Positions 20,801 through 62,509 of a stretch of 64,000 bases of DNA are shown here, one piece after another (the first letter of the stretch is position 1; each line of letters begins with the position of its first letter). The stretch spans positions 24,502,597 to 24,566,596 of the forward strand of contig CM046347.1 of the NCBI GenBank assembly GCA_025403435.1, given 5' to 3'. The notes below the pieces were generated by a model. The model had not been told where the DNA came from and did no database searches. It saw only the letters and a list, made by a program, of their open reading frames with translations. The DNA is from Artocarpus heterophyllus. Taxonomy: Eukaryota > Streptophyta > Magnoliopsida > Rosales > Moraceae. The translations under genes and the position numbers were made by a program.

Positions 20801-20893
20801 TGTCACGCACTAGGGTACGGAATGTGACGCGACGGTTAATTAAGATAATTTAATAAGAATTTTACTAAAAACGTAAGTTTAAGCATTTAGACT

Positions 20894-22906: not shown

Positions 22907-22921
22907 ATCTCCCACTTGCAC
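22907..22921 (-). other. Copia polypurine tract (internal 1)
   Basis: The minus strand reads GTGCAAGTGGGAGAT directly before the 3' LTR start TGTTAGACATG, the position where plus-strand DNA synthesis is primed. The same tract occurs at 30630-30644. Confidence 0.8.
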
Positions 22922-28580: not shown

Positions 28581-28592
28581 GCTCTGATACCA
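28581..28592 (-). other. Primer binding site, copia internal 1
   Basis: Minus strand TGGTATCAGAGC, complementary to initiator tRNA-Met, two bases from LTR2. Confidence 0.92.
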
Positions 28593-28594
28593 AT

Positions 28595-30629: not shown

Positions 30630-30643
30630 ATCTCCCACTTGCA

Positions 30644-33600
30644 CTAAGTGAGTAAATACTGCAAATTTCGCATCCCCATAGCTTCCACATGCCTTTCGAA
30701 GACTCTCCCAGAAAGTGTCTTCGTAAATGGATCAGCTAAATTGTCCTCTGACGCGATCTTGCACACCGTGACATGCCCGCTCTCAACGAAGTCCTTTATC
30801 ACATGATACTTCCGATCAATATGCTTACTCTTCTTGTGAAATCTTGGTTCCTTAGCATTAGCTACCGCCGCACTGTTATCACAGTACAGTGATACCGCTT
30901 TATCCATACCAGGAACTACCTCAAGATCCCCAAGGAACTTGCGGAGCCACACTGCTTCTTTCGAAGCATCACTAGCCGCCACATACTCGGCCTCCATCGT
31001 TGAATCCGAAGTGCAATCTTGCTTCGCACTTCTCCAACTGATGGCACCGCCACCCAGAGTAAACACAAACCCCTGATGTCGATTTCCTAGAATCCAGGCA
31101 GGATTGAAAATCCGAATCAGTGTATCCTAGAGGAGTTAAATCCTCACCCGAATACACAAGCATATACCCTCGAGTCCTTCTCAGGTACTTGAAAATATGC
31201 TTTACCGCAACCCAATGGTTTGGTCCTGGATCCGCCTGAAATCGACTCACAATCCCGACCGCATAGCTAATATCCGGTCGAGTGCAAAGCATGGCATACA
31301 TGAGACTACCCACTGCCGAAGCATAAGGTACCTTCTTCATGTATTCTCTTTCTTCATTAAGACTTTGGAGAGTCTTTCTTAGAAAGAGTAATTCCAGACC
31401 TAGATGGTTGCCCACCTTTCTTGGAATCCTGCATTGCAAACCTCCTGAGAATTTTATCTATGTAGCTGGCCTGTGACAAAGCTATCATTTTGTTCTTCCT
31501 ATCCCGAAAGATCTGGATACCGAGAACAAAATTAGCCTCACCCAAGTCCTTCATGTCAAACTGCTTGGTCAACCATAATTTGACCGATGACAACGCCCCA
31601 ACGTCATTGCCAATTAGCAGAATGTCATCTACATAGAGTAGTAGAAAAACCACCTTCCCATTCTTAATGTGTTTGTAAACACATGGTTCATCCACATTTT
31701 GTGAGAACCCATAAGTCTTGATCACTTGATCAAATCTTATGTTCCAAGAACGAGAAGCCTGCTTAAGTCCATAAATAGACTTTAGCAACTTACAAACCTT
31801 ACCCTCTTGACCCGTGACCTTGAACCCGTCTGGTTGTTCCATATAAATGGACTCATCAAGATAGCCATTCAGAAAAGCCGTCTTGACATCCATCTGCCAA
31901 ATCTCGTAGTCGAGAGCGGCAGCTATGGACAAGAGAATCCGGATGGACTTAAGCATGGCTACAGGCGAAAAGGTTTCCTCATAATCGATTCCTTCCTTTT
32001 GCGTATAACCCTTAGCTACCAGTCTAGCCTTAAAGGTTTCGACCTTTCCATCCACTCCTCTTTTCCTCTTGTAGATCCACTTACTCCCTATGGGTTTTAC
32101 CCCTTCGGGAAGATCCACAAGCTCCCAGACCCGATTAGTCTCCATAGACTTCATCTCAATGTTCATGGCCTCTGTCCAGAGTCTTGAATCAACATCCTCC
32201 ATAGCTTCTGCGTAAGTATAAGGATCCCTGTCATGTTCATCCGGTTCAGCCAAAAAGACCTCCCCATTGAACATATACCTCTCAGGTTGACGCCCGATCC
32301 TCCCACTACGCCGAAGCCCCTGAGGTTGTTGTTCAGGTTTGTTTGGTTTTTCTACACCGATCGGAATGGTTTCGTTCGGAACCTCCGGAGTAAACGGATT
32401 ACCCCTCAACTCCTCAAGCACCACTTTGCTTTGAGGTTTAAAGTCGTTCATGTAACTCTCCTCAAGGAAAGTTGCATTAGTTGAAACCACGACTTTATTT
32501 TCCTTTGGGTTATAAAAATAACCCCCTTTAGTCCCTTTTGGATATCCTACAAACACGCAAACTTCTGAACGTGCTTCCAACTTATTCGGATCCTTAAACA
32601 GGACATGAGCTGGACATCCCCATATGCGAATATGGTTTAAGGATGTCTTCCGTCTTGTCCACAACTCGTGAGGAGTTTTAGGGACCGATTTTGAAGGCAC
32701 ATTGTTCAAAAGATAACATGCGGTTTGTAGTGCATATCCCCAAAAGGATAAAGGCAATGATGAATAACTCATCATGGACCGAATCATGTCCAACAAAGTC
32801 CTATTCCTTCTCTCTGCTACGCCATTCTGCTGCGGAGTGCCCGGCGCAGTCAAATGGGATAAAATCCCATTCTCTAACAAGTGTCCCAAGAACTCATCAG
32901 AAAGGTATTCCCCACCTCGATCAGATCGAAGTGCCTTTATGGGTCTACCCAATTGCTTTTCCACTTCAGCCCGAAACTCCCTGAACTTATCATAAGTTTC
33001 GCTTTTGTGGTGCATTAGGTACACATACCCATATCTAGAGTAATCGTCAATAAAAGTAACGAAGTACTCATACCCTCCTCGTGCCCGGATGTTCATCGGT
33101 CCGCAAACATCACTATGCACAAGTTCTAGAACCCCTTCGGCCCTATTGCCCTTAGACCCGTATGGTCTTTTGGTCATTTTACCCTCCAAACAAGACTCAC
33201 ATTGAGGTATAGATTCCACCTTTAAGTGACTTAAAGGTCCATCCCTTACCAACCTTTGAATCCTATTTAGGTTAATATGGCCAAGGCGCAAATGCCAAAG
33301 ATAAGTCTTATTAGAGTGAGAAGTTTTAAGTCTTTTTGAGTTATTATCATTTATCTCAGCATTAAGCAATAGGTCCATCTTAGGTTTGATAAAATATAGA
33401 TTATTTTGCATCCATCCAGAACAGATAAAAGATTTGTTTTTACGAATCACCACTTTTTCATTAAAAGATACCACGTAGGAGTCTTTAAATAAAGAAGATA
33501 CAGAAATTAAATTCCTTTTAAATTTAGGAACATAAAAACAATCTCGCAAAATTAAACTCCTATAATTATCAAAATAAAGATGGACATCTCCCACTGCTTC

Positions 33601-34599
33601 CGCTGAGACCAAGGATCCATCGCCCATCCGAAGCGTTAAGTCTTCACGAAGTAGACTTCTCGTTTCTTTGAATCCCTGCAGAGAAACACAAACATGATTA
33701 GTTGCACCAGAATCTATGACCCAAATGTCACTGGATTCCTCAACCAAACAAGTTTCTAAATATAGAAGATCACACCTACCTCCCTTGGAAAGGAAGTCCT
33801 TGCAATGCTTCTTTATATGCCCGACCTTCCACAAAAGAAGCACTTAAGTTTCTTTGGGTTCTTCTTCTTCTTCTTCTTGCTCTTGGTAGCAATAGGAATA
33901 GAAGACTTCCCACTTTTGGCCCGTTGCTTCTTTCCATTCCCAGAGTTAGGATTGGAACCAGAAGCAGCTACCATATTGGCCTCTCCACCTAGCAGGAGAC
34001 TCCCTGATCAGCAGTTCAAACTCTTGTAACTGTTTCATCAGTTCTGTCAAGGTCATATCCCGTCTATTGCTTAGATTAAAAGTAGCTCTAAACGGAATAA
34101 ATTCCTTAGACAGAGTCTCAAAGACCATAGTCATCTGAGTTTCAGCATCGATGTCGGCTCCATTGGTTTGAGCCTCAGCGAGGTAACCCATGACCAACAT
34201 CATGTGCTCCTTTACAGATGTCCCCGGTCTCTGTCTACAGTTTAAGAGTTTCCGAAGCGCCCCTTGCCGCTTTGTTATGGCCTGGCCTCCAAACATGTCC
34301 TCAAGATTATCCAAGATCTGCTTCGCAGTCTCATAATCCTGATGTTGAGCCTGCAGCACGTTATTGATGCTAGCCATAACATAGCAGCGGGCCTGATCAT
34401 TAGCATCTTTCCAGCGTTCGTACGCTTGGAATTGCTCATTACTTGAGTCTCCCGTAGGCTCGGGAGGACAAGGAGTTGTCAGAACATATTTCAGTTTCTC
34501 AAAGGAAAGGACGATGTCCAGGTTCCGTTTCCAATCATTATAGTTCTCACCGGTCAATTGGTTTTTGTCAAGTATCGATGATAAAGCGTTTTTAGACAT
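30644..34599 (-). pseudogene. Copia gag-pol of internal 2, four frameshifts
   Basis: Near-identical to internal 1 and with the same domains. Gag starts at 34599. Breaks, from 5' to 3': an extra base at about 33987 in Gag; a lost base at about 33829 that splits the zinc knuckle after its first half; an extra base at about 31357 between reverse transcriptase and RNase H; and the same extra-G break in RNase H as internal 1 (about 31064). The main open segment, 31357-33843, holds protease, integrase and reverse transcriptase. The integrase lacks the 54 bp duplication of internal 1. Confidence 0.92.
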
Positions 34600-36249
34600 T
34601 TTCAATCTACAATAAAGAATCATATACCAAACATAAGCAAACATATATAATAATTTAGTAAGTTAACACAATTATGTAAAATCATACAAATGTGTTTATG
34701 TGTCAAAACCTTGAAAATATCACAACCTTACAACGATAATTCCCAACTCAGAATTCAACAAGCTCCTAGGGGAGTCATGCCAAATTCAATCAGGAACACG
34801 GATCCCCTCCTGATTAATATATGCCATCCAGGACCCGTATGATCCAGCATATACTAATAATCGTTTCTTTGGCCATTAATTTTATTAACAGAGCTCCTAG
34901 GGGAGGTTAATAATAAAGTTAACGTGAGTGTATAACCACCGTTTTAATATTTTATCCATGATTTATAATCACCACCTAGGGGTGTGCAACCATAAATCAT
35001 ACTAAAATACCTTATCCTTTCAGAGATCCAATCTGGTACATGATAGAAATCCCTTCCTAGGGGTTGGGACCATCATGTTCTTCCTATGGACCAACGATGG
35101 AGGCCTTAGGTTCTCTCTTCGAAAACCTTCTCCCACTCAATCTTTTGAAGTCAAGGTTTTATTTTAAAATTATGCATGAACAATTTTAATATGAGCGGCA
35201 CTCCCTATTCTATATGACATGTTATCAATATACATGGTAAATCATATTATAATGCAGACAAGCAAAGCAATCAAGCAAAGCTACAAGCATAATAATAATA
35301 ACCGTAATATTATGGTTCCACCCTAGAGAATAGAAAAACTAAGATTACAAGAGAATAATCGAGACATTTATCGATTCTTCATCCTTGAATCCTCAAGCTG
35401 TATCCTTCTTCATGTAATATCCATCTTCAAGTCCTCAATCCCGTATGAATCGAACACTTCATATTTCCGGTTATATCCAAATTTAATGTTTCTCAGAATC
35501 GTCCCAAAAATAAAATTAAAACTGCACTGGAAAAATCGCACCTTTTCTGGACACCTGGCAGCTCTCGGTCGGCAAGCCGATCTGGGTGATCGGTCTGCCG
35601 ATCATGGTGGTTTGGCCTGCCGAACATGAAGGTTCGGCCTGCCGGCAGAGCACCAAAATTTTTGCCCCACTGTCGGCCTGCCGGACCGTACGTCCGGCCT
35701 GCCGATCTGTGACATTCGGCCTGCCGAACTGTGAGGTCCGGCATGCCGACCGAGCAGAAAACCCTCAATCCAGAAAATACAATTTTAATGCAATTCATCA
35801 ATTTTATTTTTAACAATTCAAAAACATAAAATTAGAGACTCAGGAAATACCTGGAGGCGCCATCATCTATCTTTAAGTTTCGACTTCTCGTTCCGTCTTC
35901 TCCGAATAATTATTTAATTACAAAATTCTTACAAATTAAAAATTAAATGATAATTCCAAGACGGAGATGATAGTCCGCCATCTAATTACATGAAAAACCT
36001 AGATACACATTCTAACCTCTAAGGAACCATAACCGATATTAATTAATTAATAATTAATTAAACAACAATTTAATCAACCATAATTAATTAATAAACATTC
36101 ACCATATAATCCATGACAACATATATATTATATAGAAACCTAGAGTGCCATCTCTCTATAAAATTTAATTCAAGCATTGGAGAGATTAAGATCACAAAAT
36201 TTATGCATATAACATGATCACAAACTTGCAAATTTATGTAAAAACCTCG
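34600..36249 (-). mobile_element. Copia internal 2: 5' leader
   Basis: Near-identical to 26930-28580, including the palindromic array at 35567-35755. The adjoining primer binding site at 36250-36261 has one change at its inner end (minus strand TGGTATCAGAGA). Confidence 0.85.
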
Positions 36250-36263
36250 TCTCTGATACCAAT

Positions 36264-37658
36264 TGTTGGAAACAAAGTGCGCAGCGGAATTTTTTTTCAA
36301 CAATAGAAAAGATATCTGATCAAAACAAACTTTATCAAGATAATCTCTAAGAAAATAAATCCATTCACAATAATTCTACAAGTTTATCTTGTTCTAATTG
36401 TCCAAAATTAAAACAACCGATAAACAGACAAGAATTATCCGAATGCCATAATTCAACAAGTTCATCTTGAACTAATTTCTTACATAATTAATTCAACTGA
36501 TAAACAAACATGAATTATTTGATTCTTATAAATTTTAAACCAATCTGATAAATCCGACATAAGTCACCAATTATTGGAAAAGCACGCCGTGTCGTTACAG
36601 GATTTTGTGAGCTAGCAAAGGGGACCAAAATGGACCTATAAAGTTCAAGCTCATGATAATTATGAAACCCAATATCCCAGATATACATTTCACAATTATC
36701 AACTCCAACGCTACCCCACTAAAAGCTTGGAGCTGCACTCTCGAACTTTATAGAATTACGAAGCTCGTGTAGCTAAGTCTCCATGACATATCATGGTGTA
36801 TCGCATCCCCATATGATCATCCATAATCGGCTTAAGGACAAGTTCTGTCTTACCTTCCCGATTATTTTTATCTTACGTTCCATTGTCTCACCATTAGAAA
36901 ACTTACCATCCAAAGATAGTATACCATTCGGTTACACCTATGTATCCAAATGGTTGAGCGCTCCAGTTTTCCAATTACAGGACAACGCATATAAGAGGAT
37001 ATCATTACTCCTAAAGAGGAGCTATGGATTCCATATCTATGAATAACAAGTCTACGCTACCAAGAGTCATGCCTCCAACGTACCGGCATGCATGCCACTA
37101 TAGAGATGTGGGAGTCACCCATTGGTACATCAAAAGACACAAGTCGAGACAACGGGCCCATTATTCATCTCAGGATTAAGATACAATACAAATGATTGTC
37201 TAAAGTGAATCGATTTGCCAAGACAGAATTATTAATCCAAATCAATTCACTTTATGTCCCGATCCAACACATCGTCACCTATGACAACGCGCCAATGTTT
37301 CTATTCTCGGAGTCCAACTCCGATGGCCAAGACAAACCATCTCCGAAAAGGGATATAGACAACATAACAATCTTTACATGAATAAAGCGCCCAACTTTAT
37401 TCCCTCGATTGCGGATCATATATATATTTTAGACCATCACCTTAAGAGTCGTGTCTACCGCATAATCATCCCATCATATGCCCAACTCTTAAGGTTTAGA
37501 CTGATAGTCTCAGACTACTTTTTGCTTATCATACATTCAACAAATATGAACGTAAAGAGGACAATATTTGGTATATATAAATGAATAAATTCTTTATTGA
37601 TAAAAATGTCTCCAAAAACGTATTACATTTTTACTCCTTAGAGCATACATGTCTAACA
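36264..37658 (-). repeat. Copia LTR3 with internal deletion
   Basis: Keeps the LTR start TGTTGGAAACA for about 30 bp, then jumps to sequence equivalent to about 29275 of LTR2, a loss of roughly 640 bp with a short filler at the junction near 36294-36303. The rest matches LTR2 closely and ends ATGTCTAACA at 37658. Confidence 0.88.
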
Positions 37659-39594
37659 ATATGTATAAATTATACAGATCTTACTAACCTTTGTGTGAAG
37701 AACCTCCGCAACCTGTGTAGAGAAGTAACGTTCCAGAAGAGCCTCAACCAACTGGTCTTCTTTGCTATACTCTATCCACAACCGTAGTGAGTGTGGGCTC
37801 ACATGTTCAGCTCTTCCACCGGTGACTCTCCTTCCAACCAAGAGAGAGAACCCAAAGCTAGTGTTCGTGATTTGTGAACAAAAGCTCTTAGGGAGTTTTT
37901 AGATGCTCACTAGAAGAGTATCACTCTTAATCTCTCAATTGATCTGCGTAAATCATAAGACTCACTCCCTTTTTTTATAGCCATTGGTCATGGGGTCAGT
38001 CCTTATCAGATTAGGTCTCAAAAACTCGAAACAGAATCAAGTTTAGATCAATATCTGATAAGATCCGCGTGAAAACGCGTAACCTTATCGCTCGCTGATC
38101 GGCAGGCCGAACAGGCCCCATCGGCAGGCCGAACACGTCATTCGGCAGGACGAACTCCCATGAAAAAATCTCCGCGAATCTTTTATTTTTCGCCCGAGAT
38201 TCTATAGGATAAAGTCTCAGTTTTGATTCAAATAACCCAATAGAGAAGATATCTGATCAAAACAAACTTTATCAAGACAATCTCTAAGAAAATAAATCAA
38301 TTCACAATAATTCTACAAGTTTATCTTGATTTAATTTATCCAAAATTAAATCAACCGATAAACAGACAAGAATTATCCGATCCCAATAATTCAACAACTT
38401 TATCTTAAATTAATTTTATTACAAAAATTAATTCATCCAATAAACAGACATGAATTATTTGATTCTTACAAATTTTAAACTAATCTGATAATTCTAACAT
38501 AAGTCACCAATTATTGGAAAAGCACGCCGTGTCGTTACAAGATTTTGTGAGCTAGCAAAGGGGACCAAAATGGACCTATAGAGTTCAAGCTCACGATAAT
38601 TATGAAACCCAATATCCCAGATATACATTTCACAATTATCAACTCCAACGATACTCCACTAAAAGCTTGGAGCTGCACTCTCAAACTTTATAGAATTACG
38701 AAGCTCGTGTAGCTAAGTCTCCATGACATATCAAAGTGTATTGTATCCCCATATGATAATCCATAATCGGCTTAAGGACAAGTTCTGTCTTACCTTCCCG
38801 ATTATTTTTATCTTACGTTCCATTGTCTCACCATTAGAAAACTTACCATCCAAAGATAGTATACCATTCGGTTACACCTATGTATCCAAATGGTTGAGCG
38901 CTCTAGTTTTTCAACTACAAGACAACGCATAAAAAAGGATATCATTACTCCTAAAGAGGAGCTATGGATTCCATATCTATGAATAACAAGTCTATGCTAT
39001 CAAGAGTCATGCCTCCAACATACCGGCATGCATACCACTATAGAGATGTGGGAGTCAGCCATTGGCACATTAAAAGACACAAGTCGAGACAACGGGCCCA
39101 CTATTCATCTCAGGATTAAGATACAATACAAATGACTGTCTAAAGTGAATTGATTTGCCAAGACAGAATTATTAATCCAAATCAATTCACTTTATGTCCC
39201 GATCCAACACATCATCACCTATGACAACATGCCAATGTTTCTATTCACGAAGTCCAACTCCGATGGCCAAGACAAACCATCTCCCAAAAGGGATATAGAC
39301 AACATAACAATCTTTACATGAAGAAAGTGCCCAACTTTATTCCCTCGATTGCGGATCATATGTTTTAGACCGTCACCTTAAGAATCGTGTCTTTCACATA
39401 ATCAGTCCATCATATGCCCAATTCTTAAGGTTTAGACTGACAGTCTCAGACTACTGTTTGCTTATCATACATTCAACAAATATAAACGTAAAGAGGACAA
39501 GATTTAGTATATATAAATGAATAAATTATTTATTGATAAAAATGTCTCCAAAAACATATTACATTTTTACTCCTTAGGGCATACATGTCTAACA
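37659..39594 (-). repeat. Copia LTR4, lacking its first 76 bp
   Basis: Starts abruptly at the equivalent of LTR1 position 20970 and runs to the true LTR end at 39594, followed by the AGACT target duplication. It is clearly more diverged from LTR2 and LTR3 and matches the left half of LTR1, so it represents the older lineage in the array. Confidence 0.88.
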
Positions 39595-40418
39595 AGACTA
39601 ATTAAGAAAATGCGGATAATTTTAAAGCCGTTTTTAGAACAAGCATTTATAATAATTTGAACGAGTGAGAACATTAAAGTAAATAATTAGAGGGTGCAAA
39701 GGAATAAAAGAAACGAGAATGGGTCCCACTGACACACATCTTGTGCACACACATAGTACTGACAATATTATATTACAACCACAGTCCAAGTAAAGAGAAA
39801 GTTAAAATGTTACATGCCTTGATATTATAATTTAAATAACCTACTAGGTCCTTCTATTGTTCCTGAGTCCTATCTGTGGAATCCTCTCTAAACCTAAGCT
39901 GAAATCCACCTAGAAGGGGGGAAAAGTTTGAAAACAAATAAAATATGAGCGAAAGGCTTAGTAGGACTATATTTTAAGAAACATTAAATTTTAGAAAGAA
40001 ATTTCATTATTTAGGAAATTACTTAAGACAAGACTTGATTAAATAAAATCAAACAAAATCGGTCTTACCCAAAACAGTTTATAGGTCGACCAGAAAGAGC
40101 ACCATTTTCTTTTTCCTAGGCAAACCATATATATAACACCACCGTAGTGGCCCAGCTGGGTTTCGGGACCTGCCCTCAAGGTCACGCTACACGACCCGAT
40201 CTCTGTTATGGCATCATACCCTTATATTCCTTTCTATCAATTATTTAAAACTCATTTACTAGGTATTTACATTTACATTCATTATGGGGTTCATTGTGAA
40301 ATTCACCTCAATCCACGGTTTACAAAAATAACCGATAAAGTATCCTTTTTCAATCAACCATTGAAAACATTTTGATAAAAACCCTTTTTAAGGCTAAATT
40401 ATTTGAAACTGGGTTATC
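39595..40418 (-). mobile_element. Middle piece of the solo LTR
   Basis: Non-coding remainder of the 20801-49801 LTR between its two insertions. It includes an AGCGAAAG box at 39947-39955, like that in the other gypsy-type LTRs here, and ends with TTATC (40414-40418), one half of the next element's target duplication. Confidence 0.65.
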
Positions 40419-42391
40419 TGTAACGCCCCTATGTGGGGGTTAACAGTTTTTAATGAGATAAAATAAAAATAAATAATAAAAGTAAAACCTTAAAAATAAA
40501 ATTTGCCCGGGACTTAAATGAAAACTCTCAACTCAAAAATAAAAATATAAACGACAAATAAACCACAGTTTAATGTAGCACCTTAAATTTAATAATATAA
40601 ACTGTTGTCATCATCATTTTAACCCTCAACACATTGTAATACAGTCACAGAAAGTAACAATTGATGCTTACATTATCATGAAGAACATTCTTTACAATTG
40701 AGCAGTCCCAATGTAATATAGTTACATCACTTCCTCAACTATATTTCTCGTAGCCACCTCACACTTAATGAGTCCTGAAAAGATATAAACATAAGGGAAT
40801 GAGCGACACTATGCTCAGTAGAGAAAGCCATTACTCACCTTTAGGTTTTTATCATTACCACATTAAAATCTGCATGGTTAGTAGGTTACATCATATTCCA
40901 GATTATGAGGTTTATTATGATCACATCTTATGGATACCGTAGTTAATCATTACCAAGTGTCATAATTACACATTTATACAAATATTACCAATCATCATTG
41001 TTCCTAGGTATCCATGTTAAATTGAGTATCACTCAACTCATCGAAACCCAAATGGGCGCACTTGATCACCCTATAAACATTCCAAGGGTGTTCCGGTGAG
41101 GGGACATCAAGCCCCGAGTCCTCACCAAATCGATTCCTGTACAGTGTGTTCTGGGACTTTCAACCCAAGGAAGCGTCATCGCCTTCCCCCTACTTTACCT
41201 TTTAGGGTATTCATGCCCAAGGACGTAACCGTCGCCCTCTTCATGTCTCACAATTTCTCTATATTGAATCATTATCAATAGAGTTAGTTTTCCTAACCAT
41301 GCTTCTCAATTTATAATATGTGTCAATTCATTATGTTCCTCGCCGTACAATACAAGACGAGTCCATGTCATAGTTTCATATGTGATAATCATATAATATC
41401 AGTTCAACATAGATATATATATATTGCGGCAAAACAATCAATTTTAATTCTATAAAAACCTCACAAAAGATGAGTAATAGAATCCCTACCTTTTAAGCTT
41501 ATCAACAGTCTCTTAATCCTGGAATCAGTTAACGTTAGCTCCATACTCCCTTGATCCTAAGGCGTGCATAAGGACAATTAAAACTAAAGCACAACATACA
41601 ACTACATTCATAAAATTTATTTTAATTTAATCTTAGAATTTCAAGAAATAACCACTGCCCATAGAGGTATTATAAAGTTTAACAATATAAATTTTCTGTC
41701 TAGGGCATATACACTTAGACTTCATACATATGCTCCAAAATAGCAACAAACATATACTTAGGTTTAAGAACGCAAATTTGAATAATCCTTTAGTATAAAA
41801 GAAAATTTATAAATGAAAGACTAAATTTGTTCATAAGATTCTAACCTCGGATTATGGTTAGTTGGAAGCTTAAAATGGCTTCAAAACAGGTTCCTTTAGT
41901 TCGGTATGACTGAAATTCTTGCTCAAATGGAGGTGATGGTGGCTGATTTTTATGGCTGCCTTGAAGAAGTTCTCTAAGTATTTTGCTTCAGCAAAGAAAT
42001 GAGAAGAAGAGTGTGGGAACCGTGGAAGAGAAAGGAAGAAAAGATGAAGTCTTTGAAGAGAAGTGATAGAAACAATTATAGAGGAGACATGTTGAAGCAT
42101 GTCACGGAGGAAATAAAGAAAATGAGGGTCAAGAGTAGTTGGAAAAGATATCCTTATGTCTCATCTAAAGACTTTAACACACATAATGCCAATATGACAT
42201 TTTTGAGATTTATTAGAAGTTCTAAGGCTTTTTAGTAATCATACTAAATAAATATAGGAGAATTTTAGAAAACTTAAAAATAGATAAAAATAAATATTAT
42301 AAAATAAATTTAAATGAAGCAATTTTTTTTTTATACATTAAAAATTAATTTAATTACCTCAATACCCGTTAGGAGAATAACGGGTGTCACA
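40419..42391 (-). repeat. 3' LTR of the LOG element
   Basis: Plus-strand ends TGTAACGCCCC and GGGTGTCACA. Both ends carry a hairpin: CCCC-TATGT-GGGG at the left and ACCCGTTA-GGAGAA-TAACGGGT at 42364-42385. A GAGC...GCTC stem lies at about 40793-40808. The ORFs at 41096-41281, 41870-42100 and 41999-42235 recur unchanged in the other LTR only because the LTRs are duplicates. Confidence 0.93.
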
Positions 42392-42430
42392 GCTCTACCC
42401 CCCTTAAAGAAATTTCGTCCTCGAAATTTC
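42392..42430 (-). other. Polypurine tract and pol C-terminal vestige
   Basis: Minus strand AAGGGGGGTAGAGC abuts the 3' LTR. Immediately upstream, one frame reads NFEDEIS then leucine and arginine, the usual closing residues of plant Ty3/gypsy pol. This ties the element's origin to that superfamily although the rest of pol is gone. Confidence 0.8.
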
Positions 42431-43345
42431 AATTCTAGCAATACTAGTAAAAATTTTAATTCCATTATGATTCCAATTCCGAGTCTAAACCGTTAATGTT
42501 GTTTGTCCTCCAAATTTAAGTTATCGTATCTCCACTCATTTACTTGCATAATAAATCTTACTCCTAAATCCCTCAATGAGAGTATTTCTGACAAGTTTCA
42601 ACTTATAACACCGTGTAATAGTCTAAGAATCTGATCAGGCATACATATTGACCATACCATGATTCCAGTCCTTCATTGTCCATGGACTGTGATTTACAAT
42701 CACATTTAAGGAGATTGCCAGAGAAATTTTATATACTTCATCTTTAGGTTCCTTTTCCTTTTTGAGTAAGGAAAAGTCAAATATATTTGATTTCATACCT
42801 CAACTAATAATCTAAAACATAATCATAAAACATATATCACAAACACTTTTATTCAAAACTATACATTAAACTTATTCATAGAGATATTAAACGGAATCTC
42901 TGGTTGCAAACATACCCGACATATTTTTCATTAAACAGCTATCCTCATGACACAAACATTCAACCCAAATAATATACTCATATTTCATATGGAATATCCC
43001 CATAACTGACTCTGGTACTTCCACATAATATTAACAGAATATTACACATTACAAACATGATACGGATACGTTTCGAGAGTACAAGGCACTCCGTATACCA
43101 GCTATCCATATCATGCATGCTTATAGGATACAAAAACATCGATAAACAAAAGATCGGACCTTAAGAAGGATGCGTTTCGAGAGCATCAAGTACTCCGTAT
43201 CCAGCCATCCCGGCATTAGGCTCAATGAATCTAAAAGATTGAACAACAACGTACCACAAGAAACACAGAATACAAGGCAAACGGTTATTCGTAACACACG
43301 AAATACGGACACACATGCCTACATGCCAAAGATAAAACAAAAAGA
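42431..43345 (-). other. 3' untranslated part of the LOG element
   Basis: No ORF with recognisable content. A near-direct repeat of about 43 bp occurs at about 43065-43107 and 43168-43210 (shared words GTTTCGAGAG and ACTCCGTAT). Confidence 0.55.
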
Positions 43346-44035
43346 TTACAGATGGAGATTCAAATCAATTGGCCGCTCCCGGCTTTCCCTTTCCCATTCA
43401 AGCTTGGATGTTGCAGTGTCGGATTCTGGATGTATGATTTGCATTTTATCTATCAATTCCTCAGCTGTTGAAGCAGTAACAAAGATTTGTCTCTCCGATT
43501 CTGTAGTGATGTTTTCTTCCACAGCGTAATCTAGAAATTTCAAAAGACCGTCATAAAAACCCTTTACGTTCAGCAGTCCCAAAGGTTTGGAATAAAAGCC
43601 CAACAATTGCCCACAAGCAACTATAAATATTTCCTCAAGAGTACCTAGACCACCAGGTAATGCTATAAAAGCATCAGAATTATAGATTATGTCTTTAAAA
43701 TTTATAGGGATACTCCTGACTCCTTCTCCCTTACCTATGGCTTCCTTACAAAGGTTTCCTTCAACTGGAATATGAGGCCAAATTCTTACATCAGTAGCGT
43801 CGCTAGACCTAGCTGCTAGTGCCATATTTACCATCATTTTTATACTACCACCCCCATAGATTATGTTAATCTTCTTGCGTGCTAGGACTTGCCCTAAGTG
43901 ATTTGCAGCTTCTAAATAAGCTTTATCTTTTCCAAGGCTGGAACCACAAAAGACACAGACATTCTTTATTTTCTTCGTGGACTGGGAGGTAGACATATTT
44001 GGTTTATATAAGTGGTTGCTTAATGTCTGCTCCAC
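43346..44035 (-). CDS. LOG-like cytokinin-activating phosphoribohydrolase ORF captured in a retroelement
   Basis: LOG enzymes release free cytokinin bases from cytokinin riboside 5'-monophosphates in the cytosol. This intronless 229-residue ORF has the Rossmann-like start CVFCGSS (27-33), YGGGSI (60-65), PGGLGTLEE (127-135) and the KPLGLLNVKGFYDGLL segment, so family membership is clear. Length is near the usual 210-230. Plant LOG genes normally have several introns; their absence, and the location between two LTRs in element sense, point to capture from spliced RNA. The MxxRK motif expected at about 108-113 reads SIPINF, so the catalytic arginine appears replaced by Asn112, and the conserved GLMG after YGGGSI reads KMMV. 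The glutamate in TLEE remains. Activity is doubtful; a regulatory or dead copy is possible. M14 is an alternative start. The C-terminus ends LNLHL. Confidence 0.88.
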   Translation of the reverse strand: MEQTLSNHLYKPNMSTSQSTKKIKNVCVFCGSSLGKDKAYLEAANHLGQVLARKKINIIYGGGSIKMMVNMALAARSSDATDVRIWPHIPVEGNLCKEAIGKGEGVRSIPINFKDIIYNSDAFIALPGGLGTLEEIFIVACGQLLGFYSKPLGLLNVKGFYDGLLKFLDYAVEENITTESERQIFVTASTAEELIDKMQIIHPESDTATSKLEWERESRERPIDLNLHL

Positions 44036-44639
44036 TTAGACTTCGGGTTCTACATGAGATTTTAAAGATGAGAAATATACAAAAAGGGCTAAAGAGATAG
44101 ACGAGTAGGTAATAAAAAGGTAATCCAAAGATTTAAACAAAATCTTGTGCGGATAAGAAAGTAAGATAAGGTGATTGATAGTTTACAGAAAATCTGATTC
44201 ACTTTTTGAAAAAGATTAGACTCTAATTGTATAACTTTTGACAATTGAGAACAATTCGACAAAAGACCCTCTTGACACAACTGTAGACTTTTTGACAAAT
44301 ATACACCAAGTCTAGAAATTTAATATAAACGACAAATACTATAGAACTTTTGAAATTTGAGACACAAATCTTGAAATATCTGGATAAGCTTTTCAAAATT
44401 CAAACATATTACTGTACCGTATGTAACGTGTCTAATAAGATAATATATTTTATTATATATATATTTAAGAAAATCATAAATTAAATAAGATATTAACACT
44501 TACTGTATCAATCTAATAATCACAATTATTTCAAACACAAAAGCAAATATTCTGAGTAAAAGAAAAACACAAATTGTTGAACATCAGCTAAAACTGCTTC
44601 AAATAAGTAAAGACTAAATAACCTTTATAGAGCGATGAC
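44036..44639 (-). other. Spacer between ORF1 and the LOG ORF
   Basis: AT-rich, about 600 bp. The 69-codon frame at 44089-44298 shows no recognisable domain. It could hold the untranslated leader of the captured LOG transcript or an internal promoter; neither is demonstrable by eye. Confidence 0.4.
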
Positions 44640-45161
44640 TTATTCTCCATCCAGTTTTCTTATGGCTTGGCAAACAGGATCTAGAAATACCATATTCCTG
44701 AGGCGTTGTCTTTCTGTATAAAATTTAGGCCAGAGTTTAAAAATAGCTCCTTGAACATATCCACTAGGGTGACTGTGGAGAGGAGGATGAATGCTATCCA
44801 AGTTCTCCTTTGAAAGTCCATTCCTACAAAACCTTATTTTATCCTCTCTATTCGTAGACATATAACCAGGTGAAGTACATTTACCGTTACAATTTTGTCT
44901 TCCACATTTGTTACAAGTGACCACGATGGCACGAGCTCTTCTTTTCATTGCACTACGACTGGTACCCGTTCCTGGTAAACCGACATCTTGACTAAAGTCA
45001 CTCGGACGGATTTTCCCCTCTATCAACATTCTCACATCACAAGGGATGCCAAAACGCATAAGAATCCACAACCGAGTAATTCTAGCCTTGTATTTCTTTC
45101 TGAGAATCTTTTGGGAGAATGATGGGAAATACTTTCTCAGATGTTGGTACTTTGGGTCCAT
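44640..45161 (-). CDS. ORF1 of the LOG element: basic protein with four-cysteine cluster
   Basis: 173 residues, not confidently recognised. A lysine/arginine-rich N-terminal region (residues 9-30) is followed by a KRRAR stretch at 73-77 and the cluster C83-x2-C86-x4-C91-x3-C95, which could bind zinc and nucleic acid. It is not a standard Gag knuckle (CX2CX4HX4C). The order short helical segment, RRAR-type basic motif, then CxxC finger is loosely reminiscent of the small nucleic-acid-binding proteins of betaflexiviruses, but this is from memory and weak. It lies about 1.4 kb downstream of the primer binding site, where Gag would start, and upstream of LOG in the same sense. It could be a diverged Gag substitute, a captured host gene or a captured viral gene. 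Confidence 0.55.
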   Translation of the reverse strand: MDPKYQHLRKYFPSFSQKILRKKYKARITRLWILMRFGIPCDVRMLIEGKIRPSDFSQDVGLPGTGTSRSAMKRRARAIVVTCNKCGRQNCNGKCTSPGYMSTNREDKIRFCRNGLSKENLDSIHPPLHSHPSGYVQGAIFKLWPKFYTERQRLRNMVFLDPVCQAIRKLDGE

Positions 45162-46600
45162 GATGAGATGAAAGAAGAGTAAATAGAAAGGAAAAATTAA
45201 GATAGTAAATTGCAGAATCCTAGAATTCCTTCTTCTTTTAGAGAAAAAGAAGAATTTTTAATGAAAAAGAAGAGGATTTGCGATTTAGAGAGAAAATAAC
45301 AAATTAAGAGAGAAAAAGTGAACTCGGAGAAATAAGCTCCTATGCACAGTAAACGTATATGTAAACAATGATTAAACCACTGTATATGACACGTATAGAA
45401 ACCACGTGGGAGAGACAGTGTGAATCAAACTGATTTAAGATTTGAACTAGGCCCAAATGTTCTTAGTTGAAAATGGTCAGGTTGTTTCGGGCCTTAACAC
45501 ATTTAGAACGAGTTAAATAACAAACATAAAATTGAAAACCAATTCGTATGAATCTTAAACCCAATTCAAAGCCCACTATAGATAAAGTTAATTATGAACA
45601 ACAAATCTAATTTAACGACAACAAGGATCTTCCTGAATGATCCAGCAACTCAAATAATTTTGTTTTAATCAAAACCTTATTGAACAATACATACACCCAT
45701 ATGTTATTCCTAATACTCAACATCTATCAATGGATTCATCATCATTACTACCAAGGGTTTAGAATGTGACTAACCTTGAAATCAATACGATTTACGTCTT
45801 TCAACATAGACCATATCAATGAACAAAGACACTTGATGTTACTACTTAAGAACATCTACAATCCCCACAATTCTACTTATACAATATCGAATTTCCTCAT
45901 ATAACAAAATCTTAGGTAACCAAAAGATTCACTGATACACTTAAATACAATGTACGTAACGAAATATTCCAATTTTGAGATTCATGCATTCTAGACTTTA
46001 CACAGTCTCAACAGACCAAAAGTCTAACATTTATCTCTCTCAAGATTCAATACCATGATTCCCAACTTATATCATATTCCTCAAATAAATAGAACTTTCA
46101 AGAAAAGATATTGACACTTATGTGCTCCATCGAATCCACACATAATCATTACTTAGGTTTGAATCAATTACGAAAAATTTGGCATATCTATGTCAAACTT
46201 TAAAATCAATAAATCAAGCCTTATATTTCTTATTGTTTTTCACGAGACAAAAGGCTCTTAAATCCTCGTATCTATACGAATTTCTCATCGTTTATACGAA
46301 TTAAATATGCTTAGAGATCCAAATATTATACGAATCTCTCATAAGCATTCTACTTATAAACTCATTTCATATAATTATCATTCCCTCATAACTATTAATA
46401 CTTTCCTTCTATATAATTATTGTACTCATATAACCATTAGTATTTTCATTCTATGGCCTTTCCATGTTACATCCTTCTAAACTGTATAAATCAATGTGAA
46501 GGTTCATTTTGATGATGACACTGAAAATTCAACTTCAAAACCATCTCAAAAATATATTTTTTTAAAGTGGTGCTACACTCCCTAGGTTAACCGAACCTAG
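45162..46600 (-). other. 5' untranslated leader of the LOG element
   Basis: About 1.4 kb between the primer binding site and ORF1. AT-rich, no ORF of note. Such a region could hold packaging signals; nothing specific is visible. Confidence 0.6.
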
Positions 46601-46612
46601 GCTCTGATACCA
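46601..46612 (-). other. Primer binding site of the LOG element
   Basis: Minus strand TGGTATCAGAGC, complementary to initiator tRNA-Met, seven bases from the 5' LTR beginning at 46620. Confidence 0.9.
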
Positions 46613-46619
46613 AAAATTC

Positions 46620-48592
46620 TGTAACGCCCCTATGTGGGGGTTAACAGTTTTTAATGAGATAAAATAAAAATAAATAATAAAAGTAAAACCTTAAAAATAA
46701 AATTTGCCCGGGACTTAAATGAAAACTCTCAACTCAAAAATAAAAATATAAACGACAAATAAACCACAGTTTAATGTAGCACCTTAAATTTAATAATATA
46801 AACTGTTGTCATCATCATTTTAACCCTCAACACATTGTAATACAGTCACAGAAAGTAACAATTGATGCTTACATTATCATGAAGAACATTCTTTACAATT
46901 GAGCAGTCCCAATGTAATATAGTTACATCACTTCCTCAACTATATTTCTCGTAGCCACCTCACACTTAATGAGTCCTGAAAAGATATAAACATAAGGGAA
47001 TGAGCGACACTATGCTCAGTAGAGAAAGCCATTACTCACCTTTAGGTTTTTATCATTACCACATTAAAATCTGCATGGTTAGTAGGTTACATCATATTCC
47101 AGATTATGAGGTTTATTATGATCACATCTTATGGATACCGTAGTTAATCATTACCAAGTGTCATAATTACACATTTATACAAATATTACCAATCATCATT
47201 GTTCCTAGGTATCCATGTTAAATTGAGTATCACTCAACTCATCGAAACCCAAATGGGCGCACTTGATCACCCTATAAACATTCCAAGGGTGTTCCGGTGA
47301 GGGGACATCAAGCCCCGAGTCCTCACCAAATCGATTCCTGTACAGTGTGTTCTGGGACTTTCAACCCAAGGAAGCGTCATCGCCTTCCCCCTACTTTACC
47401 TTTTAGGGTATTCATGCCCAAGGACGTAACCGTCGCCCTCTTCATGTCTCACAATTTCTCTATATTGAATCATTATCAATAGAGTTAGTTTTCCTAACCA
47501 TGCTTCTCAATTTATAATATGTGTCAATTCATTATGTTCCTCGCCGTACAATACAAGACGAGTCCATGTCATAGTTTCATATGTGATAATCATATAATAT
47601 CAGTTCAACATAGATATATATATATTGCGGCAAAACAATCAATTTTAATTCTATAAAAACCTCACAAAAGATGAGTAATAGAATCCCTACCTTTTAAGCT
47701 TATCAACAGTCTCTTAATCCTGGAATCAGTTAACGTTAGCTCCATACTCCCTTGATCCTAAGGCGTGCATAAGGACAATTAAAACTAAAGCACAACATAC
47801 AACTACATTCATAAAATTTATTTTAATTTAATCTTAGAATTTCAAGAAATAACCACTGCCCATAGAGGTATTATAAAGTTTAACAATATAAATTTTCTGT
47901 CTAGGGCATATACACTTAGACTTCATACATATGCTCCAAAATAGCAACAAACATATACTTAGGTTTAAGAACGCAAATTTGAATAATCCTTTAGTATAAA
48001 AGAAAATTTATAAATGAAAGACTAAATTTGTTCATAAGATTCTAACCTCGGATTATGGTTAGTTGGAAGCTTAAAATGGCTTCAAAACAGGTTCCTTTAG
48101 TTCGGTATGACTGAAATTCTTGCTCAAATGGAGGTGATGGTGGCTGATTTTTATGGCTGCCTTGAAGAAGTTCTCTAAGTATTTTGCTTCAGCAAAGAAA
48201 TGAGAAGAAGAGTGTGGGAACCGTGGAAGAGAAAGGAAGAAAAGATGAAGTCTTTGAAGAGAAGTGATAGAAACAATTATAGAGGAGACATGTTGAAGCA
48301 TGTCACGGAGGAAATAAAGAAAATGAGGGTCAAGAGTAGTTGGAAAAGATATCCTTATGTCTCATCTAAAGACTTTAACACACATAATGCCAATATGACA
48401 TTTTTGAGATTTATTAGAAGTTCTAAGGCTTTTTAGTAATCATACTAAATAAATATAGGAGAATTTTAGAAAACTTAAAAATAGATAAAAATAAATATTA
48501 TAAAATAAATTTAAATGAAGCAATTTTTTTTTTATACATTAAAAATTAATTTAATTACCTCAATACCCGTTAGGAGAATAACGGGTGTCACA
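46620..48592 (-). repeat. 5' LTR of the LOG element
   Basis: Same length (1973 bp) as the LTR at 40419-42391 and apparently the same sequence throughout, including the terminal hairpins. The TTATC target duplication follows at 48593-48597. Confidence 0.93.
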
Positions 48593-49801
48593 TTATCAAA
48601 GAAAAGGGGTAGAAGTCCTACCTCAATACTCATGCCGATATCCCTCACCGTAATCTCGATCCGCTATACGTTAGCTCCGCGGAGCCCCAAACGACCTTAA
48701 ACAAAACTAGGTCTATCAGTATCTAATTTAAGATATCATATGTTGCTAAACTAGTTCATGGTGTCTTAGTGTGCCATTTGTATTCATAAAGTCATTTTAT
48801 AAAGTTGAAATTTCAATCGGGGTTTAAAACAGTAAAAATGGATTAAGAATCACAAAATCTCATCATACTTGATCGGTCTGTCGGTTACCCTGGTTTGGCC
48901 GGCCAAACTATGCAGTTCAGCCTGCTGGAGAATCGGTCCGGTCGGCCAAACTTTTTCTAGGTTCGGCCTGCCGGACATATGAATCCGGCTTGTCGAACCC
49001 ATGAATCCGGTCTGCCGAACTGGAAAATTTTAAAATTTTTCAGGCACAGGTTCTCAACCTCCCGAGCCCCAATTCTCATTTCAACTTGTTTTTCTCAATT
49101 CTCAGGCATGGAAATCAATCATAGATAATAGAAAAACATAATAGGACACTTTTAAACTCATTTAAACAAGATTTGCACACAAAATCCAAGAAAATCCAAA
49201 AAATAGAGAAAAATAAAAAATCTTTATTCAAATTCATTTTTCTTCAAACAAAGTTTAGATTCTAGTTGTTCTAAGTTTCCCTAACTTAGATAAAAGGTTT
49301 TCTAAGTTCAAATAAGCTTAAATTTCAAAATGCAAGAAAAATTGAAAATTTGAAAACTAACCTTGGATTAAGCTTTGAATCGTGTTTTTGGTTGCTCAAT
49401 CACGTTCCCGAGCCTCCAATCTACTAAACCGAAGCTTGTGCTCGCCTTTTTCACTCAAAAATTTGAGAAAGGAAGAGAGGGAAAGAGAGTTGAGAGAGAG
49501 TGAATGAGAGGAAGAGAGGGAGAGGGGAAAATAAATAGAGAAAGACGGTTTTGCTGCAAGAAAACCGTGTGCAGCAACCGTTTTCAAATGGGACATACTT
49601 GGTATTTGACAAATTGTTTTTTTTTAAATTCAAAATAACAATTTAAAAAATTAGAAACAATTAGAAATAATTAAAATAATAAAAACAACTTTGAATTCAA
49701 AATTTCACCAAATGATCAACTTAAGTTTAAAATATTCATTATAGTACACTAATCCACCATTTTACATTCTAATATTATTTAATTAATTTCAGGACGTTAC
49801 A
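48593..49801 (-). mobile_element. Right piece of the solo LTR
   Basis: Ends GGACGTTACA at 49801 followed by CTACT. Holds an array of CGGC-NN-GCCG-type palindromes at 48871-49020 similar to those in the copia elements. GA/CT-rich sequence occurs near 49465-49530. Short open frames (for example 49396-49596) are low-complexity. Confidence 0.65.
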
Positions 49802-53308: not shown

Positions 53309-53980
53309 CTATCATTCGATTATACCCTTGTAACCAGTTATAATGGGAAACCAGTCAATCATTATTATTACTAAAAAAATTATGACACCAGAATTTTCCT
53401 CAACAAAGAATGTCATCTTTTCATTTACATGCACACAGCATAAATAAGAAAGTAAAGGAGGGTTGTGGAAGTTAGTTGCCTGAATGGAGGAAGCAATGTG
53501 AGTGATGAATACCGGAGGGAGCTTTAAGTCTTTCACAGTCCTTTTGGCAAACACCACTATTTCGGAATCAGGATCTATCAATCAAAAACGTTGACAAACA
53601 GAAAACGAAACGAAAAGAAAAAAAAAAAAACAAAAAAACAAAATCACAACCCTTGAACTAGAAACAAAACCAAAAAAAAAAATGATGAAAAAAAGAGAGT
53701 TGATATTGAGGCCATAAATAAAAATACCAGAAGGGTTCCAAGTGAAAGCGTCTTTGAACCTCTGGCCATCCACTTCGATGTCCAATCTTATTGGAACTAA
53801 ATTCTCCGCTGTTGGGCTGCCATTATTATTATTTTTTTCATTCATTATTCATATATATCCACAACGCGAAATCAATCCCAATTCCCAAAGAACAAAAACA
53901 ATTGGGGAAAACGAAAAAAAACCTTACATTCTGAACTTCACGGCTGAGCCCTTCCATGAAGCTGAAGCCTGCCCTTTCAT
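50863..53980 (-). CDS. BSH: BSH / SNF5 (INI1) subunit of SWI/SNF chromatin remodelling complex
   Basis: Nuclear core subunit of SWI/SNF complexes that reposition nucleosomes. Ten coding exons were fitted by splice sites and reading phase: 53928-53980, 53728-53816, 53480-53574, 52841-52912, 52699-52746, 52483-52566, 52115-52153, 51869-51951, 51727-51789 and 50863-50962. They sum to 726 nt (241 residues), close to the roughly 240 of Arabidopsis BSH. The two SNF5 repeats are visible: ENLVPIRLDI (22-31) with FTWNPSDPDSEIVVFAKR, and EKIVPIKLDL (97-106) with QFLW and NNFESDPEEFA. The C-terminus has YEPIVDILSNEEVDALEARE. All introns are GT-AG except the third, which is GC-AG. The start at 53980 gives MKG, matching the family N-terminus as I remember it. 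No stop or frameshift is found, so it looks functional; it is the clearest host gene here. Confidence 0.93.
52913..53479 (-). other. GC-AG intron of BSH with AT microsatellite
   Basis: The donor reads CAG|GCAACT and the acceptor AATCAG|TCTCAG. No GT donor keeps the SSIQ-SQLADF junction in frame. The intron holds a poly(A) run (about 52975-52995) and an (AT)n tract at 53269-53303. Confidence 0.8.
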
Positions 53981-56990: not shown

Positions 56991-57037
56991 AGTACTCATA
57001 TGATTGAATGGACTCAAGTCCAGATTTGAGTACTATT

Positions 57038-58164
57038 GTTACAACCGCCCTTTTTTGGGCTATGATAAAGCACTTTTTTTATTTACCTATAAATAAAAAA
57101 CTTGGGAATACTTTTTTTTAATATATAGATATATTTACATAAACAAATTTTCTTTTACAATATTGTTTGCTAAATATTTTCAAGAGAGGTTTTGTCTTAC
57201 TTAACCATGTTATAGCTTTCATACAATACGCTTCAAAATAACTTAAAATATATTACTGCGAAAATATGTCGGTGGCGGCATCTATACCTAGTTCTGCACA
57301 TTACTCATATTCCTCCGCCAGCTCATCAATGAATTTATTCTGACTTTTTAGTGGTAATACTTACAACATGAAATATTAAGTGAGCTTAAGCTCAGTAAGT
57401 ACCAACACAGCCTACATGCCATATTCACTAAAATGCATAATTTAGTTATGCTTTCTTATGAACATTCTTTATTTTTATCATGTGTTATCATGTGTTATCT
57501 TTAGTTAGGGTCTAAGTGTTCATACCATTGTGCACATTGGTCTACGTAACACCGAGACTATACTATAACATTAAACTTCCCTTGAGTCAAGAGTTGATAC
57601 GACATTCTTCTTTAATTCTAGTGGTGTATTTACCAGTCCAATAATTATGGTTATCATACCGTGCATGAAGTCATATTCACATGTTATACACAAAACATAA
57701 ATACTCTTCAACTGTATAGTGCACACAAGTACGTATTTTATATACTCACAGGTACACATCAATATACATATAGGTATATGACATAATATACTCACAGGTA
57801 CTTATTTTGTATACTCACAGGTATACATTAATATACTCACAGGTACATATATTATTGTACACATATAGGTATACACCCTGATATACACACAGGTATATAT
57901 TTATATATATATATATATCAAATTCTATACCTACATTTTCATACAGTAAGTGGGGTTGGTACTTACTTGTTCTGGTTGCTATGCAAGTCAACTTTAGTCC
58001 TCTTTTTCCTAATCTTCTAGGGTCCTGCTTAGCCAATTACAACGCTATTAGCCGAATTTTCAATACTTCTTGTATGTGTCAATACAAAACGATTGTTAAT
58101 TAATAGATCGAGTTGTATAATTGTATACAACTCTGATAATCACGGATTCTCTTACTCCTATCTT
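57038..58164 (-). mobile_element. Partial gypsy-type LTR interrupted by a LARD
   Basis: Starts TGTTACAACCGCCC with a CCGCCC-loop-GGGC hairpin, as in the other gypsy-type LTR ends here. TGAGC-TTAA-GCTCA at 57382-57395 matches the shared LTR hairpin position. A minisatellite of ATACTCACAGGTA-like units fills about 57740-57900. The sequence is cut at 58165 by the next element; its other half would lie beyond 64000. Confidence 0.5.
57740..57900. repeat. Minisatellite of (T)ATACTCACAGGTA units
   Basis: At least six imperfect copies of a 13-25 bp unit ending CACAGGTAYA within the partial LTR. Confidence 0.7.
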
Positions 58165-61100: not shown

Positions 61101-61419
61101 GCTTTTCATTGGCGTAGGAGGTGTCAAAATCGGACGCCAAAATCTCGAACGAGATTTGAGGAGAGAGAAAGAGAATATAGAGAGAGAAAGTAGAGAGAGA
61201 GAGCCAAATTTTTTTTTATTTTTCTCTTTTTTTCTTTCTTTTTGCACTTTTATAAAAGAAATTGTGGTCCACACAATTCAATTCTTATACTGCATTGCTC
61301 TAATACTGTATAATTTTCTATGTTATTATACAGTATTTTTCATTAAACTGTACTTTTTATCTTAATATAATCCTTAACTTAATGCATTTTTAATGCATTA
61401 AAAATTCTCGGGTGTTACA
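58165..61419 (-). repeat. 3' LTR of the LARD
   Basis: Plus-strand ends TGTGACGACTCG and CTCGGGTGTTACA. It contains ACGTTTTTCATAAAAC-type tandem repeats (about 58740-58940), TTGCATAACAAATGCAAC-type repeats (about 59380-59830), a TGAGC-TTTC-GCTCA hairpin near 58662-58675, and a GC-richer stretch at 60240-61150. Open frames here (for example 59078-59269, 60913-61365) do not encode known proteins. Confidence 0.85.
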
Positions 61420-62495: not shown

Positions 62496-62507
62496 GCTTT
62501 GATACCA
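62496..62507 (-). other. Primer binding site of the LARD
   Basis: Minus strand TGGTATCAAAGC, one mismatch from the usual initiator tRNA-Met complement, two bases from the 5' LTR that starts at 62510. Confidence 0.85.
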
Positions 62508-62509
62508 CC

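What the first reader, a model, noticed from the sequence alone, without database searches (positions are those of the whole stretch)
40419..48592. LTR retrotransposon that has captured a cytokinin-activating LOG gene
Seen: two apparently identical 1973 bp LTRs, perfect TTATC target duplications, a tRNA-iMet primer binding site and polypurine tract, and between them an intronless LOG-family ORF in element sense, with no protease, reverse transcriptase or integrase. Known: LOG makes active cytokinin, and plant LOG genes have introns. Inferred: a gypsy-derived element took up a spliced LOG mRNA and moved recently. A mobile, LTR-driven copy of a hormone gene could spread altered cytokinin control, or produce transcripts that interfere with host LOG genes.
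Basis: partly seen in the sequence, partly recalled or inferred. Interest (0 to 1): 0.92.

Follow-up and report, generated by a model that had tools for sequence, protein, structure and literature searches.

The report
Young retrotransposon carrying inactive-looking hormone gene
A recently inserted plant jumping gene that has lost its own copying machinery carries a copy of a cytokinin-activating (LOG) gene, but that copy lacks the residues thought to be needed to make the hormone, and LOG genes inside such elements have been reported before.

Summary
The anatomy holds. An 8,174-bp LTR retrotransposon lies on the minus strand at 40419-48592: LTRs identical over 1973/1973 bases, TTATC target duplications, a tRNA-Met-type primer-binding site, a purine run, and no gag, protease, RT or integrase domain in six frames of the internal region. 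A gap-free, intronless LOG-family ORF (216 aa from ATG) lies in element sense.

The hormone inference does not hold. At CgLOG numbering, catalytic Arg99 is Asn, all five proposed prenyl-pocket residues are replaced, and 21 of 52 residues invariant in four LOGs are lost. The PGGxGTxxE motif survives.

Its likeness to plant-virus cysteine-rich proteins is below Pfam's cut-offs, differs in Cys spacing, and one of nine shuffles scored a better chance hit.

LOG domains in plant Gypsy elements are in print for Citrus and poplar. New here: a non-autonomous carrier with a tRNA-Met primer site, a LOG copy that looks catalytically dead, and the paired second ORF. Host, donor gene and other copies could not be examined.

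The parts
40414..40418 (.). target site duplication TTATC, left
40419..42391 (-). 3' LTR (element sense), 1973 bp, starts TGTGACACCC and ends GGGGCGTTACA on the minus strand
   Evidence: identical to the other LTR, 1973 of 1973
42398..42405 (-). purine run AAGGGGGG (polypurine tract), 6 nt from the 3' LTR
43346..43996 (-). LOG-family ORF, 216 aa from first ATG (229 aa from GTG at 44035); intronless and gap-free against LOGs; catalytic Arg and prenyl-pocket residues replaced
44640..45161 (-). second ORF, 173 aa (205 aa stop to stop), basic stretch beside C83-X2-C86-X4-C91-X3-C95; identity unknown
46600..46612 (-). primer-binding site TGGTATCAGAGCC (tRNA-Met type), 7 nt from the 5' LTR
46620..48592 (-). 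5' LTR (element sense), 1973 bp
48593..48597 (.). target site duplication TTATC, right

Best explanation
This is a young, non-autonomous plant LTR retrotransposon, probably derived from a Ty3/gypsy chromovirus, moved in trans by an autonomous relative that recognises its LTRs, PBS and purine tract. At some earlier time its lineage took up a spliced LOG mRNA by template switching and lost gag-pol. The LOG copy has since diverged into a pseudoenzyme: full length, open reading frame, LOG family, but lacking the catalytic arginine and the isoprenoid pocket, so it most likely makes no cytokinin. It is carried together with a second sense ORF of unknown origin. Shown: the two-LTR structure, the near-zero age, no gag-pol domains, an intronless gap-free LOG ORF, the residue losses. 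Inferred: chromovirus origin, trans-mobilisation, mRNA capture, lack of enzyme activity, and that an intact frame was favoured for part of its history.
For: Identical LTRs, target duplications, PBS, purine run. tRNA-Met primers occur in Copia and most chromoviruses and not in non-chromovirus Gypsy (PMC6317226, passages). No retroelement domain in six frames. LOG homology: 2a33 (AtLOG3) E 7e-43, one 201-aa alignment without gaps at 40.8% identity. Losses at CgLOG numbering (5its aligns 9-190 to 9-190): R99N, M96I, H97P, K100F, E125I, W129G; kept: S19, G116, G118, T119, E121, E122. In CgLOG, alanine at the AMP-binding and catalytic residues nearly abolished activity, S19A excepted (PMC4979012, passages). 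Of 52 residues invariant in four aligned LOGs, 21 are lost, and in residues 49-104 only 4 of 17 are kept. Neutral substitution to 66% identity with an ancestor leaves a 216-codon frame open in 2.3% of 1000 runs, to 55% in 0.2%.
Against: No RT, so the lineage rests on PBS type and a recalled pre-PPT motif. The PBS lies 7 nt from the LTR and the purine run 6 nt from it, whereas beet chromoviruses have up to 3 nt and an immediately adjacent tract (PMC3605345, passages). No poly(A) trace or flanking duplication marks a capture. The donor gene and other copies were not seen, so the losses may predate capture. Residue loss predicts but does not prove inactivity; PGGxGTxxE is intact. The simulation ignores indels and assumes a mutation bias and an ancestor.
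Confidence: 0.73

Rival explanations
1. The element carries a working cytokinin-activating LOG gene driven by the LTR.
For: LOG family above curated cut-offs; open frame; PGGxGTxxE kept; identical LTRs.
Against: Proposed catalytic Arg99 and all five proposed prenyl-pocket residues replaced; GLMG and MHxRK stretches lost; the bacterial LOG equivalog model scores 84.2 against a cut-off of 300 (no plant LOG was run as a control).
Confidence: 0.05
2. The LOG ORF is a retained accessory protein of the retroelement: a LOG-fold nucleotide binder without hydrolase activity, kept because it helps the element.
For: Full-length frame without stop or gap despite 41% identity to AtLOG3; neutral decay rarely keeps such a frame; PGGxGTxxE and most C-terminal invariants kept, 17 of 23 in residues 105-216; LOG domains recur in other plant Gypsy elements.
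Against: No second copy was available, so dN/dS is untested; the donor may already have been divergent; the fold could not be modelled (mean pLDDT 41.0).
Confidence: 0.3
3. Neutral passenger: a recently captured copy of a host LOG-like gene that was already divergent and inactive.
For: Identical LTRs fit a short history; retro-transduced genes are usually in one or few copies (PMC7264820, parts 1 and 2 of 3).
Against: Needs an intact divergent host donor, not seen here.
Confidence: 0.35
4. Assembly or structural artefact: a host LOG retrocopy lying between two separate insertions of one LTR.
For: Only the assembled sequence was seen; identical LTRs can arise from collapse.
Against: Matching TSDs outside both LTRs, PBS and purine run inside them in one orientation; no N in the window.
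Confidence: 0.03

Closest known systems
LOG (YgdH) extra domain in Gypsy elements of Citrus and Populus (PMC9289625, section 12; it cites Steinbauerova et al. 2011, which I did not see; that two Athila-like elements resembled LOGL4 is recalled)
   Same: LOG-family domain inside a plant LTR retrotransposon.
   Different: That survey found elements by their RT domain; this one has no RT. The tRNA-Met PBS excludes Athila-type priming. Catalytic state of the Citrus and poplar domains was not seen.
LOG3 of Arabidopsis (2a33) and other LOGs
   Same: Same family, gap-free over 201 residues, PGGxGTxxE kept.
   Different: 40.8% identity; catalytic Arg and prenyl pocket replaced.
Maize Bs1 and other gene-transducing LTR elements (PMC7264820, parts 1 and 2 of 3)
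   Same: Element carrying host-gene sequence in element sense.
   Different: Bs1 is described there as carrying sequences of several host genes; here one whole LOG frame plus one unidentified ORF.
Orchid Gypsy element with an AlkB RNA demethylase (PMC9289625, passages)
   Same: Captured host-type enzyme domain in a plant Gypsy element.
   Different: The AlkB protein keeps its cofactor residues and was active in vitro; the LOG copy here has lost key residues.
Carlavirus cysteine-rich protein (PMC10141686, PMC3689765, passages)
   Same: Basic stretch next to a Cys cluster.
   Different: Cys spacing CX2CX9-12CX4C there, CX2CX4CX3C in the second ORF; scores below cut-off.

Membership tests
LTR retrotransposon | paired direct LTRs with target duplication | tested here: met
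   1973/1973 identical; TTATC on both sides
LTR retrotransposon | PBS and polypurine tract in one orientation | tested here: met
   minus strand, 46600-46612 and 42398-42405; 7 and 6 nt from the LTRs
Autonomous element | gag-pol | tested here: not met
   six frames, no retroelement domain at E<=1
Ty3/gypsy chromovirus | tRNA-Met PBS | tested here: met
   also typical of Copia, so not diagnostic
Ty3/gypsy chromovirus | RT phylogeny and chromodomain | not testable with these tools
   no RT or chromodomain in the element
Athila-like LOG-carrying elements | non-chromovirus type PBS | tested here: not met
   PBS is tRNA-Met type; non-chromoviruses do not use tRNA-Met
LOG family (fold and sequence) | PF03641/TIGR00730 above curated cut-off, PGGxGTxxE | tested here: met
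Active LOG phosphoribohydrolase | catalytic Arg99 and Glu122 (CgLOG numbering) | tested here: not met
   Asn at 99, Glu at 122 (residues)
Active LOG phosphoribohydrolase | prenyl-pocket Met96, His97, Lys100, Glu125, Trp129 | tested here: not met
   Ile, Pro, Phe, Ile, Gly (residues)
Active LOG phosphoribohydrolase | enzyme activity | not testable with these tools
   needs an assay
Plant-virus cysteine-rich nucleic-acid-binding protein (second ORF) | Pfam PF05515 or PF01623 above gathering score | tested here: not met
   16.2 against 23, 12.9 against 20.9; in the read-through frame only PF01623, 14.4
Plant-virus cysteine-rich nucleic-acid-binding protein (second ORF) | basic motif beside CX2CX9-12CX4C finger | tested here: not met
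   basic stretch present, spacing CX2CX4CX3C

The most novel reading that the evidence does not exclude
The element has replaced gag-pol with a two-gene accessory cassette: a LOG-fold pseudoenzyme that binds nucleotides without hydrolysing them, and a basic Cys-rich protein taken from a plant RNA virus that counters RNA silencing, so that a non-autonomous retroelement carries its own anti-silencing and nucleotide-handling genes.
Probability: 0.07. Interest if true: 0.85.

Novelty: new variant of a known kind. Interest (0 to 1): 0.36.

Why it matters
Captured genes in LTR elements are mostly judged by family name alone. Here the name suggests a mobile hormone gene, while the residues suggest a LOG relative that kept its frame and nucleotide motif but lost its cytokinin chemistry. 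If other copies show purifying selection, LOG would be a recurrently recruited retroelement accessory protein with a non-hormonal role, which is testable in the Citrus and poplar elements already reported. If not, it is an ordinary passenger and a warning against reading hormone effects from domain hits.

Tried and rejected
Protein homology search against the large protein set could not be made (database switched off). Scans of viral contigs with each ORF found no relative. Structure predictions without an alignment were too poor to use (mean pLDDT 34.8 and 41.0), so no fold search was run. No Rfam family reaches its gathering score in the window.

Hidden frameshifts as the cause of the LOG residue losses were considered and not supported: the best tblastn alignment of each of four LOGs is a single frame without gaps over the whole stretch. 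A local one-residue shift around Trp129 would spare Gln131 but not Trp129 (inspection).

Second ORF as a captured plant-virus cysteine-rich protein: two related Pfam models touch residues 63-118 at E 0.011 and 0.11. Against it: scores under the cut-offs; one of nine composition-preserving shuffles drew an unrelated hit at E 0.0039 (none of the nine drew these two models); an unrelated dehydrogenase model matches the same stretch at E 0.006 and a dehydrogenase chain at E 0.28; Cys spacing differs. Kept only as the novel case.

Literature: six of the ten searches bear on prior reports of captured or extra ORFs in LTR elements (for lineage marks, 66); one search asked for five of six terms and found none. 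Only the open-licence library was searched.

Full report
Observation. The element is real at the stated coordinates and complete in outline. The LTRs at 40419-42391 and 46620-48592 are identical over 1973 of 1973 bases, and TTATC flanks them on both sides. Orientation is minus: TGGTATCAGAGCC lies 7 nt inside the LTR at 46620 and the purine run AAGGGGGG lies 6 nt inside the LTR at 42391. The element is 8,174 bp. No difference in 1973 sites gives a 95% upper age of about 58,000 to 109,000 years with substitution rates of 1.3e-8 and 7e-9 (the rates are recalled), unless gene conversion or assembly collapse made the LTRs alike.

Type of element. Six frames of the internal region, with stops as X, show only the LOG models and a sub-threshold Carla_C4 match at E<=1: no gag, protease, RT, RNase H, integrase or chromodomain. 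A tRNA-Met primer is used by Copia and most chromoviruses and not by non-chromovirus Gypsy (PMC6317226, passages). The sequence just before the purine run, found intact here and once more in the window with one mismatch at 61433-61449, resembles the tail of Tekay chromoviruses as I recall it; no call tested that. Against a chromovirus origin, the beet chromoviruses have the PBS within 3 nt of the LTR and the tract directly beside it (PMC3605345, passages). I therefore call it probably chromovirus-derived, and surely non-autonomous as it stands.

The LOG ORF. The frame 43346-43996 (216 aa from the first ATG) passes the curated cut-offs of PF03641, PF18306 and TIGR00730 and matches 14 distinct PDB sequences at E<=0.001, best 2a33, AtLOG3, at E 7e-43 (the name from PMC4979012, passages). 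The best tblastn alignment of 2a33 to the internal DNA is one frame, 201 residues, 0 gaps, 40.8% identity, so there is no intron over the conserved length. That plant LOG genes have introns is recalled. No poly(A) run of seven or more follows the ORF inside the element.

Why it probably makes no cytokinin. 5its, which is CgLOG, aligns to the ORF at the same numbers, 9-190 to 9-190. In CgLOG the proposed catalytic residues are Arg99 and Glu122, the adenine site is Met96, Lys100 and Glu121, and the prenyl pocket is Met96, His97, Lys100, Glu125 and Trp129; alanine at the AMP-binding and catalytic residues nearly abolished activity, except S19A (PMC4979012, passages). The ORF has Asn99, Ile96, Pro97, Phe100, Ile125 and Gly129, and keeps Ser19, Gly116, Gly118, Thr119, Glu121 and Glu122. 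Of 52 residues invariant in four aligned LOGs it keeps 31; the losses cluster in residues 49-104, where 4 of 17 are kept, against 10 of 12 before and 17 of 23 after. This is prediction from residues, not an assay.

Passenger or accessory. AtLOG3 and the other Arabidopsis chain, 1ydh, are 68% identical to each other (135 of 198). If the captured gene was about as close to AtLOG3 as that, most divergence came later, and neutral substitution to 66% or 55% identity with an ancestor leaves the frame open in only 2.3% or 0.2% of 1000 runs. So either an intact frame was favoured for part of the time, or the donor was already divergent. Without a second copy I cannot choose between them.

The second ORF. 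It is 173 aa at 44640-45161, upstream of LOG in element sense, 643 bases apart. At 205 aa stop to stop it exceeds the longest ORF of 2000 simulations, 189. It has 34 Lys/Arg against 13 Asp/Glu and a basic stretch before C83-X2-C86-X4-C91-X3-C95. PF05515 and PF01623, both plant-virus nucleic-acid-binding families, touch residues 63-118 at E 0.011 and 0.11, under their cut-offs. The controls weaken this: one of nine shuffles drew an unrelated model at E 0.0039, an NCBIfam dehydrogenase model hits the same stretch at E 0.006, and carlavirus fingers are spaced CX2CX9CX4C or CX2CX12CX4C (passages). I treat its origin as unknown.

Prior knowledge. A survey of 121 angiosperm genomes reports the YgdH domain, as in LOG proteins, in Gypsy consensus sequences of two Citrus species and, with a filter off, Populus trichocarpa, in line with Steinbauerova et al. 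2011 (PMC9289625, section 12). I did not see the 2011 paper; from memory it describes two Athila-like elements resembling LOGL4. A review describes additional ORFs in plant LTR elements and gene transduction as a source of some (PMC7264820, parts 1 and 2 of 3). So LOG in an LTR element is not new in kind. The tRNA-Met carrier without RT, the loss of catalytic and prenyl-pocket residues, and the second ORF are the new points; I found no report of these in searches, which cover open-licence papers only.

Verdict. Observation confirmed; the mobile-hormone-gene reading is not supported; a new variant of a known kind, of moderate interest.

Noticed in passing
20893-39595: Copia-type elements in tandem: 28594-32682 repeats 20893-24958 at 97.0% and 32628-36294 repeats 24958-28625 at 99.2%, with further LTR-like blocks at 36301-37660 and 37659-39595; the first unit has a 1250-aa open frame at 23249-27001.
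   Followed up: partly
53732-53809: Minus-strand match to the first 30 positions of the SNF5/SMARCB1 family (PF04855, E 2.9e-08), preceded by an in-frame Met. No further SNF5 stretch was found in the minus frames scanned (20893-39595, both LTRs and 57000-64000 were not scanned). The LOG element lies downstream of it on the same strand and could lie in its intron.
   Followed up: partly
58165-59655 and 62510-64000: Direct repeats of about 1.5 kb at 94.2% identity, the second running off the window: probably LTRs of another, older element.
   Followed up: no
61433-61449: Second copy, one mismatch, of the motif that precedes the purine run of the LOG element, not beside an LTR end seen here.
   Followed up: no
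43060-43230: Two similar stretches ending in 'cgtttcgagagNNNcaagNactccgtat', 3' of the LOG ORF in element sense, look like a short diverged direct repeat (by eye).
   Followed up: no
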